64,000 bases of DNA, from NCBI RefSeq assembly GCF_011075055.1, contig NC_058146.1, forward strand, positions 12,325,820 through 12,389,819, given 5' to 3'. This DNA comes from Mangifera indica. Taxonomy: Eukaryota; Streptophyta; Magnoliopsida; Sapindales; Anacardiaceae. Position 1 is the first letter of the stretch. Each line of letters starts with the position of its first letter. Under the pieces are notes generated by a model that saw only the letters and a program-made list of their open reading frames with translations, was not told the DNA's origin and did not search any database. This document shows, piece by piece, positions 6,500 to 17,160 of the stretch. A program made the position numbers and the translations under genes.

Positions 6500-7720
6500 G
6501 TTTGGGATCATATAGTCGATACCCCTTTTGTAGCATAGGGTATCTTGTGAAGATATAGTAGGTGGTTCTAGATGTAACTTCTCAGCCTGAATAGATTTGG
6601 GTAGAAACATAAAAACCCAAATACGCATAAATGTTATATGTTTAGTGGTTTTCTGAACAAAAGCTTATAAGGTATTTTACCATTAAGACTATGTTGGCAT
6701 TCGATTGATCAAGTAAGTTGTTGTGACCACATAGTCTTCTTAAGAATATGTAGAAATATTGGTTTGGTGTTTTAATGCATGGGTTACCTCTAATAACTAT
6801 CGATATTTACATTCAACGAGGCCATTTTATTAAGAGGTGTATATACAAGGACTTTTATGAAGTATCCCTTAAGACTGGAAAAAAATAGTGGTGTGATGAT
6901 TAAGGAAATCTCGGGTGTTGTCAATTCTAACCTTCTATACTTTGGTATTGAACTGTGTTTTGACCATGCTACAAAATTGAACAATATAAGAATAAGTTTG
7001 AGCTTTTGAATTCAATAAGAAAATCCAGGTGGCCTGAGAGTAATCATCTACAATAGTTAAGAAGAATATGATCCATTATGGTTTAGGGTGTTATAGGGGC
7101 CCCAAATATTCATGTGGACCAAACTAAAAATTTTAGTTGTGGTGGATGTGCTTGTTGGGAAAGGTGGACGAGCTTGCTTAGCTAATGGACAAATAAGATA
7201 TTTAGGATATGGAATAGTTGCACTATGTCCTAACTCTGATGTAAAATAAACAACCTTTTATTAATGGTAACAACATTACAATTGGAATATGAGAATGATT
7301 TCAGTCATCCAAATGTGAAAACCATGTTACAGACTACCCAAGCCTATTAGTTTCCTAGTCAAAAGGTCCTGAAATTTACAAACATCAGGAAGAAATTTTA
7401 GTACATAGTTATTGTCCTTACGAGCCTGAGACATTAAGATTAAGTTAAAGTGGAAAAAGGGAACATAAAGGATGTTTTTTAGAACGAAATCTCTTAGACG
7501 TATACTTTCTCAATAAGTTACGTGAGTAGTATGGCCATTAGGCATTTTGACATAAGTAGGTTAGTTAAGAGTCTACAGTGTTGATTAAGGTCTGGTGTGT
7601 AAACTATATGGTTATTAGCCCCTAAATCTATTATCCAAACATCAACAGATAACTAAGTGTTGAGACAAAAAGATCTACCTGTATATATAGGAAAAGCTTT
7701 ATTAGGCTTTGGAATTTTTG
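6500..7720 (-). pseudogene. Copia A protease and integrase remnant
   Basis: At 7560-7700 the minus strand reads VWIIDLGANNHIV, the copia protease active-site region with DSG changed to DLG. At 6790-6984 a broken integrase core is recognisable by a segment equivalent to the conserved NTPQQNGVAERKN motif (here read as YTPLNKMASLNVN). The reading frame shifts several times. Flanking integrase text is visible but too decayed to fix exact limits. Confidence 0.7.
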
Positions 7721-7944
7721 TCAAGAGTTCTAGCAGTTGTTAATACTATTATGTAATGAGTCATGAAGGTAAAAAGTTGTTGAAGTCAGGTCTTACTTGG
7801 TTGACAATGTGATGCTTAGACTTGACTTTGTTGGATCCTAGTTTGCCAAATAGTTTCCAATTGGCGTCTTAGCTATGATTGCAACATTTGCAAAAAACAC
7901 AAAATAATATTTGGTGCTAAAGGGCTGAGTGTGATTATCCAGAG

Positions 7945-8700
7945 CTACAAGTGGTTGAAAGTATTATGTGGAAAGCCATGGGTCGTTATATATGCCCCAA
8001 AAATTTGGGGGCCTTTTTGTAATACTTGAGTAGATGAATTTTGGTAGTTAGTTCCAAAAGGATAATCTGATCTATTAAAAGAATATAAAAAAGCTTCTTT
8101 TTTCAACCTTAAATCAACATTACTTGCCTTTGGTGTTGACATCTTAATGCTTTCCCTTTTTGACCCCTTTTGAGTTGCTAGCGAGGATGCTAGGAAGGCA
8201 CTTGGTGATTTACCTACATCAAGACTTATCATCCTTTGAAACTCACCTTAGATGGCAAGCTGGTAGACTCGTCAGAGGGAAAACCCACTGCCACCAGTTA
8301 ACATTTGTGTCTAAAAAACGATGAAGCCTTTATTCAACCTAAGGAGGAAACACGTCAACCATTCCTGATCTTTGAGGCTCTGAACTTGCCAAAGTGTCTT
8401 TGGTAGGCCGATGATCAGATTTTTGACAATATCAATTTTGTTCCATATGGCTGACAATTTGTTGTAATAAGCAATCACTGTTTGATTGCCTTGCCAAATA
8501 TCGACGAGGCTTTGACGGAAGTTGAAAAGTTTTGCTAAATCAAGTCATCCATACATTTCCTTGATATTTTCCCACATTTCTTTAGCCATTTCGGTTGGTG
8601 ATAGATCAATAGACACTTTTGGAGCCAAGTAATTGTCGATCCATGCTTGTGCCAAGACATTACATTTATTCTAAAAACATAGCAAGTCAGGTTTTGATGA
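7945..8700 (-). pseudogene. Copia A gag (UBN2-type) remnant
   Basis: At 8690-8350 the minus strand reads CNVLAQAWIDNYLAPKVS, AKEMWENIKEMYG, KLFNFRQSLVDIWQG, then VIAYYNKLSAIWNKI. This is the standard UBN2/retrotrans_gag pattern of copia capsid proteins. The 95-codon frame at 7945-8232 is the basic, decayed region before the protease. The N-terminal ~70 residues are absent, because the homology stops abruptly at the MULE boundary near 8711. Confidence 0.8.
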
Positions 8701-8710
8701 CATGGGAACA

Positions 8711-8950
8711 GTTTTAGGATATATCAACTTGTATTTTTCAGATTTTCGAAGAATTGTTCGATTATTACCATTTTAGGGTATTTCAACTTTTAGAATTTGA
8801 ATTTCAGTTCTGTTTTTTTGAATTTTATCGTTTTAAGATATATCCACTAGTATTTTCCAGATTTCTGAAGAAATTTTTTATTATTGACATTTTAAAGCAT
8901 TTCAAAGTATAGAATTTGAATATCTATTTCAAAGTATAGATATTATAAAA
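8711..8950 (+). repeat. Left copies of the MULE 119-bp subterminal repeat
   Basis: Two monomers start at the GATATATC-type anchors at 8718 and 8836 (spacing 118). Their reverse complement matches the right-hand array closely: shared blocks are TTTAGGGTATTTCAAC, GAATTTGAATTTCAGTTC and GATATATC. The copies are more diverged than those on the right. The outermost unit abuts copia A gag sequence. Confidence 0.85.
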
Positions 8951-10801
8951 ACGTTTTAAATGGAACGTTACAAACAGATAGATGCATTTTGAGGGGTAAA
9001 ATAACATACGAAAGTGTTATATAAATTGTTATATAAATTGTCAAATAATTATAGGGGGATAAATAAATTATTAGAAAAATATTAGGAGTTTTTCTTAATT
9101 ATTAATAATTGTACGACTGTTTTTCATAGTTATTATTGATTTTTTTATTATAAATGAATAATTATCTTCAAAAACTGGTCATTGCAGGATTCATAATTAA
9201 AATGGATGGTTATGCATCAGTTCGTTATCAGGGAGAATGGATTCAAGGTCGCAACAACACAATGAAATATGTTGGAGGAGCCAAACAATTGATTAAAATC
9301 CCTTATGGAACAACATTCGAGGGATTTATTGAGCTTTTGACGAAGTCTTGCAGTATTGATCCAATGAAAAACTACATTCAAGTATCGATGAAGCCAAGAA
9401 AAATTGAGCTCGACGGCCCCATCCAGATCCAAAATGATGAAGATGTCCAAGGTCTTCTTGATATGTGCCAGTACTTTCAGGAATGTATTCCTGTATTTGT
9501 TACATGTACCCCAATTGAAGGGCAGGAGGATGAAGATGAAAACGAAAGTAGTTGGGTCAAAAAAGAATATGATTTGGAAAAGTTGATTGATTTCAGTAAT
9601 GACCCGTTGTATATTGCAAACTCATGGGCTCATGGAGAAAAAGATATAGTTCCCTATTGGGGTGACTTTGATGGAAATGATATGCCCGACATTCCTTCAG
9701 AAGATGTAGAGCCTGAGTATATGGCATCAGTTACCGAGGGTATGGTTGTTTACAGCTTGAAGATCCTATTTCAGGTGGTGGAAATTATTCTGGGCCATTT
9801 TTTGACAATGTCCCCACTAATCCATTTAGGTGGCTTCCTGATTTTCCTCCACAGCCATCAACATCATCAGGTAGTTCCAGATCGATCCGAGAGGAGCATG
9901 GTGTCAAGATAAGGGATATTTTTCATAATAAAGTCCAATTGAAAGACGCTGTGAAGCAATTCGCCTTACTGAAAGGATTTCAATTTGATGTCAAAAAGTC
10001 TGACAAGAAACGGTGGGAAATTAAGTGCACGGTCGAAAATTGTAAGTGGTATATACATGCAACCAAGTCCACTGTTGGTGATGTGTGGGGTATCAACTCT
10101 ATGAATCCTACCCACACATGTTTAGTTGATCAAATCTTGCCACATCACAGACAAGCTGGCGCCCAAGCTTTAGGTCAATTAATGAGATCAAAGTTTGTGA
10201 TGATTGATCGAATTTATCGGCCTAAAGAAATAATTGTAGACATCGCCGACCAATATAAAATTGATATTTCCTACTCACAGGCTTGGCGGGCAAGAAATTG
10301 GGCTATCAATTCATTGAGGGGTTCACCGGAGGAATCTTTATGTTGTTACCAGATTATTATTACAATTTACAACGTACTAATCCGGGCACCGTTACTGCTA
10401 TTGAAACAGATGATGAGCATCAATTTACAAATTTTTTCATGGCGTTAGGATGTTCCGTTCGTGCGTTTAGTCAATATCTTCACCCCGTTATTTGCATTGA
10501 CGCTGCTTTCCTTAAAGGTCAATATCTGGGGCATTTATTTATTGCGGTGGCTCTTGATGGTAATAATCAAATATACCCTATTGGTTTCGGTGTCGGCAAA
10601 AAAGAAGATCACAACACGTGGTGTTGGTTTCTTATGAGAATTAAAGAATGCATCCCTGACCTCTCTAAGCTTGCAATAATCTCCGATCAACATCATGCTA
10701 TCTACTCGACAATGGCTGAAGTCTTTCCAGATGTCCACCATGGATGCTGTTGTCATCACCTTCTGTGTAACATGCAGGCAAAGTATAAACGGGACTCAAA
10801 G

Positions 10802-10894
10802 GTATATTGTAAACAAGTAATTAAATTTATAACAATTTATCATTTTTAAACATTTTGCTTACAATGAGTTTTCATATTTTTTACCATCTTACAG
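10802..10894 (+). other. Intron 1 of mudrA-like gene
   Basis: The donor is AAAG|GTATAT and the acceptor TTACAG|GTCGCG. Removing it joins ...YKRDSK to VAGAYWKVAK in phase 0, restoring the continuous MULE transposase domain. Confidence 0.8.
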
Positions 10895-11189
10895 GTCGCG
10901 GGTGCATATTGGAAAGTCGCTAAATCATACACAGAGTCTGAATTTGGTTCGATGATGTAATCCATTGACTCAATGAACCCCCAAGCTGGAGCTTATCTAC
11001 GGGATGTCGGCTTTCACCGTTGGAGTAGAGTGTACTTTTCAGGACATCGATACAACATCATGACCACAAATATTGCTGAGTCATTTAATGCCCTTGTCAG
11101 ACACGCTCGGGGCCCACCTATAACCATGCTTTTGGAGTTTATTCGTGGTACCATGCAACGATGGTTTTATGAGAGGAGAACCCATACAA

Positions 11190-11292
11190 GTAAGTATCAA
11201 ATCGATCTTAATTAAAAGTTGTCTCATATACTTTTTTCCACTTTGTTAATCATATTACCAAATGTATTCTTAATATTTTTTCTGAATTACAG
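11190..11292 (+). other. Intron 2 of mudrA-like gene
   Basis: The donor is CATACAA|GTAAGT and the acceptor GAATTACAG|GTGAAT. Splicing joins ...RRTHT-S to ECHNFLTPWAEEK, the expected context before the SWIM domain. Confidence 0.8.
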
Positions 11293-11854
11293 GTGAATGT
11301 CATAACTTCCTCACCCCTTGGGCAGAAGAGAAGATCAACAATCGCCTTTCAAAGTCTGCAAGTCTGGAGGTTCGACCGATTACACCTACTCGGTATCAGG
11401 TTGTTGGATTTGGTGGATTCATGAGTATTGTGGACTTTGGTGACATGTCTTGCACGTGTAGAAAGTTTCAGCTTTCACGTATTCCGTGTAAGCATGCCCT
11501 TGCCGTTGCACGACATATGAGACTGACGAATGTGCACGCATGGGTTCATCCATTCTTTTGTACCGATATTTACTGTGCAATATATCAAGAACCGATCAAT
11601 CCTCTTGGAAATCAATGTGATTGGTTACACTCACCGGAAGACAGAGTAATATTGCCCCCGTCCTCCATAGTCGTCGTCCAGGTCGTCCATCCAATAGAAA
11701 TCGACGTCCATCGCAAGGAGAAATTGTTACACCGAGGATTTGCAGTCGTTGCCATGAACCGGGGCATACACGAACCCAATGTAAATCTCCAGCACCGGTG
11801 CCGAGCTCCGCCCCCCAGCGTTCACATACAAAAGGCAAAGGAACGAGATCTTGA

Positions 11855-12216
11855 CATGTTTATACTCAATTTTGTTTGTTATATGATTCTTCATTGATGT
11901 ACTTCAATTTTATGTAACCGATGTATTTTTATTATTGTTTCAAACGTGTAATTGTATTGTTATTTGATGTAATAAATTTAGTGTTTCGTATGAGTTATTT
12001 CAGTATTACTTTATTTTCTCTAATTGTTTCAAGTGTGTAAATGTTTGAATAATCATACGTTTTTATTGTTTTTTCATGACAAGATTATTTAAAAAATGAA
12101 ATCAAATACGATACACATCCATATATAACCACAAATAAAGTATATCATACACATATGCACATACAATAAATATATACATCTAAACATAGGAATAACGATA
12201 AATATACATCCGTGAG
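11855..12216. other. Convergent 3' region between mudrA and the ULP1-like gene
   Basis: This ~360 bp AT-rich spacer separates the two stop codons. It holds no open frame of note. AATAAA-like polyadenylation text occurs for the plus-strand gene (AATAAATTTAG near 11971). Both genes would terminate transcription here. Confidence 0.6.
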
Positions 12217-12615
12217 CTACTCGATACAGTGAAAATACAACTGCGTCGTTAATCGTCGACGCATAGAGGTAGACGACTCTCGGGGAAAAACGTAGCTCCG
12301 TGCCAACGCCAAATACTCAAAAAATCGCAACATAAAGATGCCACAGTCACCGGAGCCTACCCCCTGCTGAGGGACATCCGACGCTCGATGCAAAGTCAGG
12401 GGATCACGTTGTGGAGTCATCCCAGAAGCTGTCCAAAAACTCGTCGCCTCTAATAACGCGGGAATAAAGGTCATGTATGGTCGCATGCGCTGCTCCAGAG
12501 TCCCTGTATTCCCCAAAAATGAAACCTCTGAATCGTACACCGTAATTGACCACTCATGAAAATCTATAACTCCGACGACCCAATGTGCGTTCTCAAAGTT
12601 TATAGGGATGAAAAC
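12217..12615 (-). other. Catalytic exon of the ULP1-like gene
   Basis: This exon is 133 codons including the TAG stop at 12217-12219, fully open. It contains His (AHW, about codon 11), Asp (YDSE, about codon 28) and Cys in SGDCGIF, with the preceding Gln of the oxyanion hole. The acceptor is TTTATAG|GTTTTC at 12616-12617. Confidence 0.9.
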
Positions 12616-13897
12616 CTATAAACAATGAGACATTTTAGTTACTTATCGTTGTCGTTATGTTCTTGAATGTAATAGAAATATATATAAACTATACCTGATC
12701 GACCAGCCCCCATGGTTTGTATAACAATCCCGGGGTGTACGCTGCATCAACCATCCTCGTGAAGAGCCTCGAAAACTCAAACTCTCTAATCGGTGTGGTC
12801 TACCAACTCTTCCAGGCCATCTCAATATGGCCTCCAAAGAATGTGTGGGCAGTCATCCAATGTTGTGAGATAGTCGAGGGGTGATCGTCCTGCTGCCGAC
12901 GTAATAAAGCCAAAAAGGAGTCCACATGCTAAAATGGTATAAACAAGTTCACGTGTTAGTTATTAATAAATATATCTAGCTTTTTATCAAATTATATAGT
13001 ATAGACAACTCACATCGTTGGTCAACCACTCGCGCAACTCTACAACAAGCCTCCAAAAGTTATCCTTCGACTTCGACCCGATGAAGTAGACATCATGTGA
13101 GTCGGAAGCCGCAGCGCTGGTGTACCACGTGAGGAAAGATTCCTCACACTCAGAGGCAGAGGATGGAATGGCCGTAGGTTGCTGTTTCGCCCTCCCTTTG
13201 AGTGGATTCGTATACGGGGTGTGAATCAGTGGACCCTTCTGGACGATCCGGCCACGTGCTGTACGAATCATCTGCATGATCCCAAAAAAATAATTAATTC
13301 ATCATTCATCCTACTTAACAATTACCATTAATCGATTTATCTTACCTTCTCCAAGTATGCGAGAGGAGGTTTAGTTGGAGAATCATGAATCACGGTCAAG
13401 TCCACCACGCGTGCTCCCTCGGCGGACTAGAAAATACAAATTTTGAACATCTCAATGACCAATATATACAACTATTTATATACTAAGTATGATTGATATA
13501 CCTCAATAGGGATGGCCTCAAAATCATCCTCCTGGAAGTCCTCTTCCGGTGAACCAATATCCCGCAGAATTTGGTTTCGGGTAAACGAAGCAAGGACCCG
13601 AAACATATCCTCTCAAATAGTCGCAGCTGATGAGGGGTCAATGTAGAAGAAATACGAGATAATGCAGTACGCTGTGCACGAGATATCGCATCTGCCCAGA
13701 AGTGTCTGGACTCATCGGGAATGCGCAGCTCGCTGTCAATCCGTCTTCTTTTGCGAGAAATATCCTGTAACAATCACATAAAATTTGTTAGACATTCATA
13801 AAAATAAATATGTAAACAAATGTATTAGTGAAAAAAACATAAAAAGATGAGAAATTCCAAATAATCAAAAAGGAAATGACAAAACTTAACAAATAAG

Positions 13898-14815
13898 AAC
13901 TGAAATTCGAGTTCTATACGTTCAACTTCTGTAGAATGTTAACAATCGAAAAAGTTATCCTGAAATGACGAAAAATAGGAAAAACGAAACTGAAATTTGA
14001 ATTTTATAGATTAAAATACCTTAAAGTGACGATAATTGGAAAATGGTTTAGAAATCTTGAAAATACGAATCGATATATCCTAAAATGGTTAAATTCAAAA
14101 AAATAGAACTGAAATTTGAATTCTATACGTTGAAATACCTTAAAGTGACGATAATCGGAAAATGATTCGGAAATCTTGAAAATACGAATCGATATATCCT
14201 AAAATGGTGAAATTCAAAAAAACGGAACTGAAATTCGAATTCTATACGTTGAAATACCTTAAAGTGACGATAATCAGAAAATGGTTGGGAAATCTTGAAA
14301 ATACGAATCGATATATCCTAAATTGGTGAAATTCAAAAAAACGGAACTGAAATTCGAATTCTATACGTTGAAATACCTTAAAGTGACGATACTCGGGAAA
14401 TCATTCAAAAATCTTGAAAATACGAATCGATATATCCTAAAATGGTGAAATTAGAAAAAACGGAACTGAAATTCGAATTCTATACGCTGAAATACCTTAA
14501 AGTGACGATAATTGAAAAATCGTTCGGCGATCTTGAAAATACGATTCAATATATCCTGAAATGGTGAAATTCGAAAAAACAGAGTTGAAATTCGAATTCT
14601 ATACGTTGAAATACCTTAAAGTGACGATAATCGAAAAATCGTTCGGAACTAGTAAAAATACGAATTCATATATCCTAAAATAGTGAAATTCGGAAAAACA
14701 GAACTGAAATTCGAACTCTATCAATTGAAATACCTATGAATGTCGCTAACCAAAAAATCATTTGAAAAATTGAAAAAACGAATCGATATATCCTATAAAC
14801 GAAAAATCGAAATAT
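13898..14815 (-). repeat. Right-hand array of the MULE 119-bp repeat (about 8 copies)
   Basis: The anchor AACTGAAATT (one copy GTTGAAATT) recurs at 13898, 13988, 14107, 14226, 14345, 14464, 14583 and 14702. The last six steps are exactly 119 bases. The first unit is shortened to 90. Shared blocks include CGAATTCTATACGTTGAAAT, ACCTTAAAGTGACGATAAT and CGAATCGATATATCCTAAAA. The inner copies are close to identical, and those at the ends are more diverged. If the gene model is right, the array lies inside intron 1 of the ULP1-like gene. Confidence 0.95.
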
Positions 14816-15039
14816 TAAATTGAAATTACGTCGTTACATCGTAAGTTGTGTCAAAAAGCACCAAAATTCGAAAACTCGAATTTAAAATTTGAAAAATACA
14901 TATAGAAAAACCTAAAACAGAAAAAACTGATATAAAATTCGAAAACTACATGATCAGAAACCGTGGATAAGAAAATTCTCAATTTAACCCCTCATGAAAA
15001 TTCTTTAATTAAAAAGGTCCAATGTTATATCAAAAATTT

Positions 15040-16250
15040 CCATAAAACCCCCTATGTTGTAACGAATCTATCCGGCTCCCCAAGGTTTTAAAAAACCCAC
15101 TTTAACCCCCAACTAGGACTGGCAAAAGACGCTGCCGTGGGAAAATTCGTCCTGCCGTGGGAAATTCCGTTCCCACGGCAGACTGTCGATCCATTCAGCA
15201 GCTAATTTCGGCCAATTTTTGGTCGTTTCGACCTCCGATTTTTACATAAATCAAATCTACACATTGTATAACATAAAACCCCTCAATCAATTCAACAAAA
15301 ACAACCAAAAATCCAAACATTTTAAGCAATATTCAAAGCGTAAACCCTAAAATTTCAAACCCAAAATTCTCAATCAAATCTCAATTATATCAGCAATAAA
15401 TTGATCCAAACAAGATTACGGGAGATATACTAACCTTCTTTGTCATTTACGGTTGCTGGGAAGCTTCAAAATCGACGGAAATGACCTTCGCTGTGGGATT
15501 GACGTGGGAGGAGGAAAACTTGTGGAATTTTCGTGGAAATGCATAGTGAAAACAGAACTTGCCGTGGGAAGAAATGAAATTTTGCTGTGTTTATAAAGGG
15601 GGGCAGTTTCGTAATTTTGCTTTTCCCACGACAACGTGCGAAATTTCAAAAAAACCCGATGTGGGCTAAGGATTTCCCCGACACCCCAATGTGTTAAAAA
15701 AGCCAGTTTACCCCCCCAAACCCATTGTCCATTCAACTGCCATGGGAGAACTCGTCTTGCTGTGGGAAACTCCGTTCCCACGGCAGACTGCCGATCCATT
15801 CGGTAGCCAATTTCGGCCATTTTTGGTCGTTTCGACCTCCGATTTTTACATAAATCAAATCTACACATTGTATAACATAAAACCCCTCAATCAATTCAAC
15901 AAAAACAACCAAAAATTGAAACATTTTAAGCATTATTCAAACCGTAAACCCTAAAATTTCAAACCCAAAATTCTCAATCAAATCTCAATAATATCAGCAA
16001 TAACTTGATCCAAAAAAGATTACGGGAGATATACTAACCTTATTTGCCATTTGCGGTTACCGGAATGAAAGAAAATCGACAGAAATGACATTCGCCGTGG
16101 GATTGCCGTGGGAGGTGAGAAGCTTTGGAATTTTCTCTCGCTTGTACAGTGAAAATTTGCTGACTTTATATATGGGGGCAGTTTCGTCATTTCACAAAAC
16201 ATGGGCATTTTTGCTTAAACCTAAATTTTTTGGGCAATTTCGCTTTGACC
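15040..16250 (-). repeat. ~605-bp tandem duplication of the ULP1-like promoter and first exon
   Basis: Unit A (about 15040-15643) and unit B (about 15644-16250) are direct repeats. CCGTTCCCACGGCAGACTG starts at 15167 and 15772. GATTACGGGAGATATACTAA starts at 15414 and 16018. The long text between them is nearly identical. On the minus strand each unit reads promoter-like sequence, then an ATG with a 12-nt exon ending in AAG|GTTAGT: 15446-15435 in A and 16050-16039 in B. Both units also contain GGGGGCAGTTTCGT. Confidence 0.92.
15152..15181. promoter_or_regulatory. Perfect 12-bp inverted repeat CTGCCGTGGGAA / TTCCCACGGCAG
   Basis: The arms are 15152-15163 and 15170-15181 with a 6-base loop. 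The same structure recurs with one mismatch in unit B (about 15757-15787). Isolated CCGTGGGA or its complement recurs near 15132, 15557 and 16086-16110. Its core is CGTGG/CCACG. Whether it binds a protein is unknown. Confidence 0.6.
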
Positions 16251-16275
16251 CCTTTAATTTTGTCTATTTTTAATA

Positions 16276-17160
16276 ATTTCCCAATATATTATGTTGTTGA
16301 TATTTTTGTGTTATTTCTAATGGCGTTTTGACCTGCTATTCCAACAGATTGAGTTATATTTAGTTTTTGATTTCGCTATCCTATTCTTTTGACATGATGA
16401 GCTTCGATTGCTTCCAAGTCTCTTTATAAACTCATTGTTCTTTGTTAATATATTTTTTCACTTACCGAGAAAAGAAATGAAGTGTGATATTCATCCAAGG
16501 CTGCATATACCAAATCTCAAGTATAGATAAAAATCCATATACATATTCATATCTGTCGATGACAAGAATGTGAATCAACATAAAATGGACACACTATTTT
16601 CTTGATATTATCTATTTATAAACAAAATTTACAAAAAAAAAAAAAGGTATTTTGTTGCAATTAAAGAATTTGGTATAGGATGTAAGAATTTTTATGACTC
16701 ATATGACATTAAGATTTTGCTTTATCGAGTATAATAGTATTTATTTGATAAAATAAATTAATATAAGATTTTCAATACCGAAATTCTATCGATTAATATA
16801 AAGATGTGACTTTTATGATAAAAAGATATGATTCTTCCTAATGAAAAGAGGTGATTCTTTATGATGAAAAGAAACAACTCTTTACTAATGAAAATATGTG
16901 ACTTTTGATGGAAAGTCACCATTAATTCTATAAATAGGAGTTGGTCCTCTCTCTACCCCTAACATACATATAGTTTTCACAACACTTACATTACAACACA
17001 CTAATAGACAACTTATATATAGAAAAATATTAAGTTGTTTTTATCCATCATTAAGTCAAGGGGTCAAGTGAGAGAAATCAACATCCTCTATACTTCTTCA
17101 TGAATTCTCTTTATGATTAGCACGTTATAAAATATGATGAAATCAAGGTATGTTTTTCTA
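16276..17160 (+). other. AT-rich sequence ending in an LTR-like or promoter-like piece
   Basis: No gene is seen. From about 16740, degenerate ~30-base repeats of the type TGATGAAAAGA...GTGACTCTTT lead to CTATAAATAGGAGTTGG (16931-16947), a good TATA box. A C/T-rich stretch follows, then TGATTAGCACGTTATAA near 17115. This order resembles the U3-R end of a copia LTR, perhaps a solo LTR, but I see no primer binding site after it. Confidence 0.4.

What the first reader, a model, noticed from the sequence alone, without database searches (positions are those of the whole stretch)
8711..16275. MULE carrying a ULP1-like protease whose catalytic triad is preserved while the transposase is dead
The minus-strand gene keeps His (AHWVV), Asp (VYDSE) and the Gln/Cys box (QGVGSGDCGIF). 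It also keeps five phase-consistent introns, with only one TAG (12802-12800) and one single-base loss (exon 2 is 263 nt). The transposase next to it has three frameshifts and a stop. The contrast may mean the protease was kept longer by selection or supplied in trans, or simply that damage fell elsewhere. ULP-carrying MULEs (Kaonashi type) are established; why a transposon keeps a deSUMOylase-like enzyme is unresolved.
Basis: partly seen in the sequence, partly recalled or inferred. Interest (0 to 1): 0.75.

Follow-up and report, generated by a model that had tools for sequence, protein, structure and literature searches.

The report
Decayed mango transposon with SUMO-protease gene
This is a broken copy of a mango jumping gene whose family carries a SUMO-protease-like helper gene; the helper gene mattered to the family, but in this copy it is broken too, so its apparent preservation means little.

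Summary
The MULE is real: a decayed, truncated copy (window 8711-16283) of a large mango family that carries mudrA and, convergently, a DUF1985-Ulp1 gene. The claimed contrast fails. The "single-base loss" in exon 2 is the scar of a 1,874-bp deletion between 13-bp repeats, which removed DUF1985 and further exons. With one TAG, the ULP gene is dead as well. In this copy, lesion rates in the two genes do not differ (1 per 969 nt against 4 per 2451 nt, p 0.56). Over 22 sampled elements ULP has more lesions per kb than mudrA (2.27 against 1.12).

Before insertion, ULP was under purifying selection (internal-branch dN/dS 0.27-0.40), somewhat weaker than mudrA (0.18-0.24), so it is no mere passenger. 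In the largest mudrA-less subgroup (n=15) ULP drifts near-neutrally.

Complete transposed elements with exact 9-bp target duplications lack mudrA (L020, L058) or nearly all of ULP (L036); both keep element ends and inverted 119-bp arrays. DUF1985 plus fast-diverging arrays in the ULP intron and upstream of mudrA match VANC anti-silencing systems. That function is inferred, not shown.

The parts
8711..16283 (.). MULE remnant; ULP-side terminus at 16283, truncated at 8711 on the mudrA side
   Evidence: alignment to copies A and B; terminus GGGAAATTATT as in A and B; no mudrA-side end found in the window by blastn
15435..15446 (-). proposed exon 1 (Met-Thr-Lys-Lys) followed by GT
   Evidence: sequence; inferred, no RNA data
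16039..16050 (-). second copy of the exon-1-like start (Met-Ala-Asn-Lys) in a duplicated 5' region
   Evidence: 16135-15641 against 15532-15034, 85.6% identical
13980..14795 (-). array of 119-bp tandem repeats, 6.9 copies, inside ULP intron 1
   Evidence: TRF
13502..13764 (-). 263-nt fusion of the 5' part of exon 2 with the 3' part of a later exon; out of frame after the junction
13550..13562 (-). 13-bp repeat at the scar of the 1,874-bp deletion that removed DUF1985 and other exons
13346..13426 (-). ULP exon Eb
13014..13271 (-). ULP exon Ec
12695..12928 (-). ULP exon Ed; stop at 12802-12800 (CAG to TAG, private to this copy among the 52 aligned)
12217..12615 (-). ULP last exon Ee, Peptidase_C48 catalytic region with H, D, Q and C
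   Evidence: E 1.8e-21
9202..11854 (+). mudrA pseudogene (two introns); DBD_Tnp_Mut, MULE and SWIM domains over cut-off, PB1 below cut-off
10958..10960 (+). TAA in the second mudrA exon, also present in copies A, L021 and L022
   Evidence: coordinate read
8711..8930 (+). about 1.8 units of the 119-bp repeat, inverted relative to the intron-1 array, upstream of mudrA

Best explanation
The window holds a dead, truncated copy of a mango Mutator-like element. Complete members are about 10.8 kb, end in short imperfect inverted repeats (GGGAAATT...AATTTCCC) and sit in 9-bp target duplications. They carry mudrA and, convergently, a DUF1985-Ulp1 gene; the ULP intron and the region upstream of mudrA hold inverted arrays of 119-bp repeats (shown). 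In the family the DUF1985-Ulp1 protein was selected (shown). In this copy it is destroyed by a 1,874-bp deletion and a stop, so its 'preservation' beside mudrA is chance (shown as far as the counts allow). Most likely mechanism (inferred): the protein is a VANC-type anti-silencing factor. Its DUF1985 half recognises motifs in the arrays of any family member, in trans, and lifts silencing so that mudrA can be expressed and the ends mobilised; the Ulp1 half may strip SUMO from silencing proteins or serve as a non-catalytic module. Because both proteins act in trans, deletion derivatives that keep only ends and arrays, or one gene, still spread.
For: Copy B: 10,821 bp, 9-bp duplication TTATTTAGA. 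DUF1985 matches in A and B. DUF1985+Peptidase_C48 proteins in Citrus, Cannabis and Humulus. Internal-branch dN/dS: ULP 0.38 (n=29), 0.37 (n=49), DUF1985 part 0.28 (n=16), mudrA 0.22 (n=26), 0.18 (n=12); tests against 1 gave LRT 16.9-60.6. Controls: 6 neutral simulations gave internal dN/dS 0.79-0.94; shifted frames gave 1.7-3.3. mudrA-less (L020, L058) and ULP-less (L036) elements with exact 9-bp duplications, all with both arrays. Arrays: majority units of A and B differ by 15% where shared introns differ by 0-13% and C-terminal exons by 3-8%. VANC literature: DUF1985 in VANC, targets as fast-evolving tandem repeats in VANC/VANB introns and upstream of VANA (passages of PMC5735166); review passage on Ulp1-bearing VANC genes (PMC13317346).
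Against: No binding, methylation or RNA data. The array motif was not tested for function, and its location and fast divergence would also fit ordinary promoter or subterminal repeats. Coding constraint alone can make arrays look fast; the intron nearest the arrays is 87% identical between A and B. In the largest mudrA-less group (15 copies, junction 12061) ULP evolves near-neutrally (dN/dS 0.87, not different from 1, 7 shared stop sites), so ULP gives no visible benefit in cis there. L036 transposed without its own ULP. ULP has more lesions per kb than mudrA in the sample.
Confidence: 0.6

Rival explanations
1. The Ulp1 protein acts in transposition itself: it deSUMOylates the transposase or repair proteins at the cut site (the suggestion made for Ulp1 and OTU domains of other DNA transposons).
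For: Ulp1 or OTU domains sit in Ginger1, Mutator and other elements and a role in transposition or repair has been proposed (passages of PMC2836005). Catalytic residues are mostly kept in mango: H 49/52, D 51/52, C 50/52 copies, one of the other two a gap.
Against: Does not explain DUF1985 or the arrays. Hop relatives with the same domain order lost Cys, Asp and Gln (alignment), so catalysis is not required throughout the group.
Confidence: 0.2
2. As the reader's strong option: in this copy ULP was kept longer than mudrA by selection.
For: Fewer small lesions in ULP (1 against 4). The mudrA TAA is shared with copy A, so mudrA may have died first.
Against: ULP lost DUF1985 by deletion; private changes are neutral-like; p 0.56; the family trend is the reverse. 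The same TAA occurs in L021 and L022, which do not group with A and W in the ULP tree, so it may be recurrent.
Confidence: 0.05
3. The ULP gene is a captured host fragment carried along without function.
For: Near-neutral ULP in the 12061 group; ULP-less elements transposed.
Against: Internal-branch dN/dS of ULP and of DUF1985 well below 1 with controls; same domain order in other eudicots.
Confidence: 0.1

Closest known systems
Kaonashi (KI) MULEs / KIU genes of Arabidopsis (Hoen et al. 2006, not read; described in PMC6117577 and PMC2528002)
   Same: MULE with a Ulp1 (Peptidase C48) gene in reverse orientation to mudrA, high copy number
   Different: Mango family; here the ends, 9-bp duplication, DUF1985 part, arrays and one-gene derivatives were worked out. 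No relation by descent to KI was tested.
VANDAL elements with VANC anti-silencing proteins (PMC5735166, PMC10398659)
   Same: DUF1985 in the accessory protein; fast-diverging tandem repeats in the intron of that gene and upstream of the transposase; trans action on copies
   Different: Passages I saw of these two papers describe no Ulp1 domain in VANC21 or VANC6; a review passage (PMC13317346) says some VANDAL VANC genes have one. The mango repeat motif, binding and demethylation are untested.
CUMULE-type and grapevine ULP1 MULEs (van Leeuwen et al. 2007, not read; PMC2528002 passages)
   Same: Ulp1 downstream of the transposase in plant MULEs, in either orientation
   Different: No DUF1985 or array analysis in the passages I saw
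Ginger1 transposons (PMC2836005 passages)
   Same: DNA transposon with a Ulp1 domain
   Different: Ulp1 is fused to an integrase-like transposase; a different superfamily

Membership tests
Mutator-like element (MULE) | mudrA-type transposase with MULE/DBD/SWIM domains | tested here: met
   PF10551 E 2.7e-21, PF03108 E 2.5e-11, PF04434 E 5.9e-10 in separate frames
Mutator-like element (MULE) | 9-bp target site duplication | tested here: met
   4 of 4 relatives with both ends read: B TTATTTAGA, L020 CTTTTGGAA, L058 TAAAAAGGA, L036 TTTTCAAAA. L024 could not be judged (one end not fetched). Not testable for the truncated window copy.
KI-MULE / Ulp1-bearing MULE | Peptidase_C48 gene opposite to mudrA | tested here: met
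KI-MULE / Ulp1-bearing MULE | descent from the same capture as Arabidopsis KI | not tested
   no tree with Arabidopsis sequences was made
VANC-type anti-silencing system | DUF1985 domain in the accessory protein | tested here: met
   in relatives A and B: E 2.6e-12 over cut-off for one A piece; 1.5e-7 and 9.5e-7 below the bit cut-off for stop-interrupted pieces. Absent from the window copy (deleted).
VANC-type anti-silencing system | tandem-repeat targets in introns of the accessory gene and upstream of the transposase, diverging fast and in concert | tested here: met
   positions; A against B units 0.24 between, 0.13-0.15 within (ULP-side arrays), majority units differ by 15%
VANC-type anti-silencing system | sequence-specific binding and loss of DNA methylation in trans | not testable with these tools
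   needs EMSA/ChIP and bisulfite sequencing
Active deSUMOylase | His-Asp-Gln-Cys catalytic set | tested here: met
   all present in the window exon. Protein as a whole broken; activity not testable here.

The most novel reading that the evidence does not exclude
The mango family has split into a bipartite, trans-complementing system: ULP-only elements (mudrA deleted, some with open DUF1985 and Ulp1 exons, such as L024) and mudrA-only elements (intact mudrA, ULP deleted, L036-L038), both spreading in the same genome and held together by shared ends and 119-bp arrays, with the DUF1985-Ulp1 protein as an array-directed anti-silencer whose Ulp1 half removes SUMO-dependent silencing.
Probability: 0.2. 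Interest if true: 0.7.

Novelty: new member of a known kind. Interest (0 to 1): 0.42.

Why it matters
Why plant transposons keep a SUMO-protease-like gene is an open question. This genome makes it testable. Many copies give measurable purifying selection on both DUF1985 and Ulp1 parts, at a strength near that of the transposase. Natural mudrA-less and ULP-less elements with exact target duplications show that each gene can be missing from a transposed element. The arrays give a concrete candidate target for the protein. For this particular copy the message is corrective: a kept catalytic triad beside a broken transposase says nothing about selection.

Tried and rejected
Structure: AlphaFold2 of citrus relative P0007 with five relatives gave mean pLDDT 33; no fold search was made with it and the second job was not used.

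Whole-genome counts of ULP against mudrA by a short pattern never ran, so genome-wide ratios of one-gene elements are unknown; counts here are of the fetched copies.

'ULP kept by selection in mudrA-less elements': the 8-copy set looked selected (dN/dS 0.44), but with 15 more copies the big 12061 group is near-neutral (0.87). The 8-copy set has several junctions and short branches, so selection before mudrA loss explains it equally well. Rejected as shown. Open ULP reading frames (exons Ea-Ee) in 8 of 23 mudrA-less against 1 of 15 mudrA-bearing nearest relatives: p 0.06, not significant and age not controlled.

'Catalytic residues specially protected': H is lost in 3 of 52 copies, D in 1, C in 1 (plus 1 gap); 46 of 132 residues are invariant; only Trp of the four checked sites (H, W, D, C) is among them. 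No special protection shown at this divergence.

'Arrays track DUF1985 type': two exon-2 types exist (about 86% identical) and L012 combines types, but the adjacent array is linked anyway and the far arrays are of one kind in A and B; no coevolution shown.

Papers: Sasaki et al. 2022 (EMBO J) is not held and was not read; its content on Ulp1 in VANC is recalled, plus a review passage. Hoen 2006 and van Leeuwen 2007 were not searched for by id and not read. Literature searches for Ulp1, DUF1985, VANC and mango MULEs were made; none listed a mango paper on these elements, but the library is partial.
Full report
WHAT IS THERE. The window lies at G000:C10:12325820-12389819 of a 391-Mb assembly. 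It is mango: Mangifera indica protein records sit on contigs with the same lengths as G000:C6 and C1. Between 8711 and 16283 is a MULE remnant: mudrA on the plus strand (9202-11854; DBD_Tnp_Mut, MULE and SWIM domains, PB1 below cut-off) and a ULP gene on the minus strand (12217-15446), convergent. At least 150 Peptidase_C48 places over the cut-off exist in the genome (150 of 1073 candidates scored), as do at least 40 ULP copies at 92-100% (40 of 1137 candidates scored) and 40 mudrA copies (40 of 1426); each list includes the window itself.

THE OBSERVATION. So are the three frameshifts and the stop in mudrA. The 'single-base loss' is wrong. The main alignments of all 39 other scored copies start at window 13562, and the 19 copies read have other exons upstream. 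Copy A (C7) is 97.5% identical over 13562-8711 and 94.9% over 14798-13550, but carries 1,874 bp more between two copies of GGATATTGGTTCA; the window keeps one. The lost part encodes DUF1985 (PF09331: E 2.6e-12, 1.5e-7 and 9.5e-7 for stop-interrupted pieces of A and B) and a Ser-rich, coiled-coil-like exon (my reading). L026 has a separate deletion in the same area. The window copy also lacks its mudrA-side end; retrotransposon-like frames abut at 8711 (weak Pol_BBD match below cut-off).

IS THE CONTRAST REAL? In the window copy ULP has 1 small lesion in 969 nt and mudrA 4 in 2451 nt, p 0.56. Private changes are neutral-like in both (ULP 4 replacement, 1 stop, 1 silent; mudrA 17 and 2; ULP was compared with more copies than mudrA, so 'private' is stricter for it). 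Over the 22 elements with both genes sampled, ULP has 50 lesions in 21,988 nt and mudrA exons 2-3 have 21 in 18,732 nt, p 0.006; in the 8 with full mudrA, 21 in 7,140 against 19 in 19,656, p 0.0005. The sample mixes copies found by ULP likeness, by mudrA likeness and by best Pfam score, so the rates carry those biases; C-to-T stop-prone sites are only 1.2-fold denser in ULP. Stops recur at the same Gln and Arg codons in unrelated copies, the mark of C-to-T decay.

SELECTION IN THE FAMILY. I wrote a codon likelihood model with separate dN/dS for internal and terminal branches. ULP exons Ea-Ee: 0.38/0.65 (n=29); catalytic exon 0.29/0.72 (n=32); Ea-Ed 0.40/0.75 (n=30); mudrA exons 2-3 0.22/0.84 (n=26); full mudrA 0.18/0.95 (n=12). 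On the same 22 elements ULP is 0.27/0.70 and mudrA 0.24/0.77. With 20 more copies ULP is 0.37/0.75 (n=49 of 52; three dropped for less than 60% length). DUF1985 part: 0.28/0.95 (n=16 of 23 examined, seven dropped as absent or partial). Controls: shifted frames gave internal values 1.7-3.3 and six neutral simulations 0.79-0.94. So the protein was selected while the element lineage was active and decays after insertion, like mudrA. Recombination was not screened, and L012 is a mosaic.

ONE-GENE ELEMENTS. Of the 39 nearest ULP relatives, 23 lack the mudrA 3' end and run from the ULP 3' region straight into the 119-bp array; one (L023) has a partial mudrA; 15 keep the mudrA 3' end. Junctions: 12061 (15 copies), 12073 (3), 12096 (2), 11995 (2), 11977 (1). 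So mudrA was lost several times, and four of the five forms then multiplied. L036, L037 and L038 have mudrA without stops or frameshifts in all three exons but almost no ULP. L020, L058 and L036 have both ends and exact 9-bp duplications, and L020, L058, L036 and L024 have both arrays. In the 12061 group ULP is near-neutral (0.87; 7 shared stop sites), while 8 other mudrA-less copies give 0.44. Hence ULP-less and mudrA-less elements moved with help in trans, and selection on ULP after mudrA loss is not shown.

ARRAYS. Units of 119 bp stand in ULP intron 1 and, inverted, upstream of mudrA: 11.9 and 3.9 copies in A, 12.4 and 2.8 in B, 6.9 and about 1.8 here. I read 188 units in 25 arrays of three or more units from 17 copies (15 of the 17 come from ULP- or mudrA-based loci with limited flanks). 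Units are more alike within an array (0.13-0.15 differences) than between A and B (0.24); the majority units differ by 15%, while exons Ea-Ee differ by 3-8%, introns between them by 0-13%, and exon 2 by 13%. They evolve fast and in concert.

HOW IT MOST LIKELY WORKS. Shown: structure, selection, mobility of one-gene derivatives. Inferred: the DUF1985-Ulp1 protein is the family's VANC-type factor, read from DUF1985 in VANC proteins and VANC targets being fast-evolving tandem repeats in VANC/VANB introns and upstream of VANA (passages of PMC5735166; abstract and passages of PMC10398659). A review passage states that some VANDAL VANC genes carry Ulp1 (PMC13317346). The Ulp1 half could deSUMOylate silencing factors; but in hop relatives the aligned Cys, Asp and Gln are replaced, so in some lineages it may be a binding module. 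A role in transposition or repair (PMC2836005 passages) is the main rival.

COMPARISON AND NOVELTY. It is a MULE by all features tested, and a Ulp1-bearing, KI-like MULE by gene order; common descent with KI was not tested. It works like VANC systems in anatomy; binding and demethylation are untested. New member of a known kind; the natural split into ULP-only and mudrA-only elements is its most interesting trait. Deletion derivatives as such are ordinary for MULEs (my knowledge).

Noticed in passing
protein P0006 (mango, contig of 29,456,600 b = length of G000:C1): A mango gene model named calmodulin-binding transcription activator 3-like continues from its IQ region in frame into ULP exons Ea-Ee with an open catalytic region (PQQGQGSNDCGIF): a possible host-transposon fusion, or a gene-prediction artefact.
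   Followed up: partly
P0010-P0013 (Humulus lupulus), alignment A1: Hop DUF1985-Ulp1 proteins have Ser for the catalytic Cys, Asn for Asp and no Gln: catalytically dead Ulp1 domains kept in transposon-like proteins.
   Followed up: partly
window 16135-15641 and 15532-15034: The ULP-side subterminal region, including the exon-1-like ATG plus GT, is duplicated (85.6% identical); B-like 5' pieces also match twice in L020, L058 and L036.
   Followed up: partly
window 7330-8710: Retrotransposon-like minus-strand frames (weak Pol_BBD match below cut-off) abut the truncated MULE at 8711.
   Followed up: no
L066 (L012) against L067 (L013) and copy A: Exon 2/DUF1985 comes in two types about 86% identical; L012 has one type while its later exons group with the other, so copies recombine.
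   Followed up: partly
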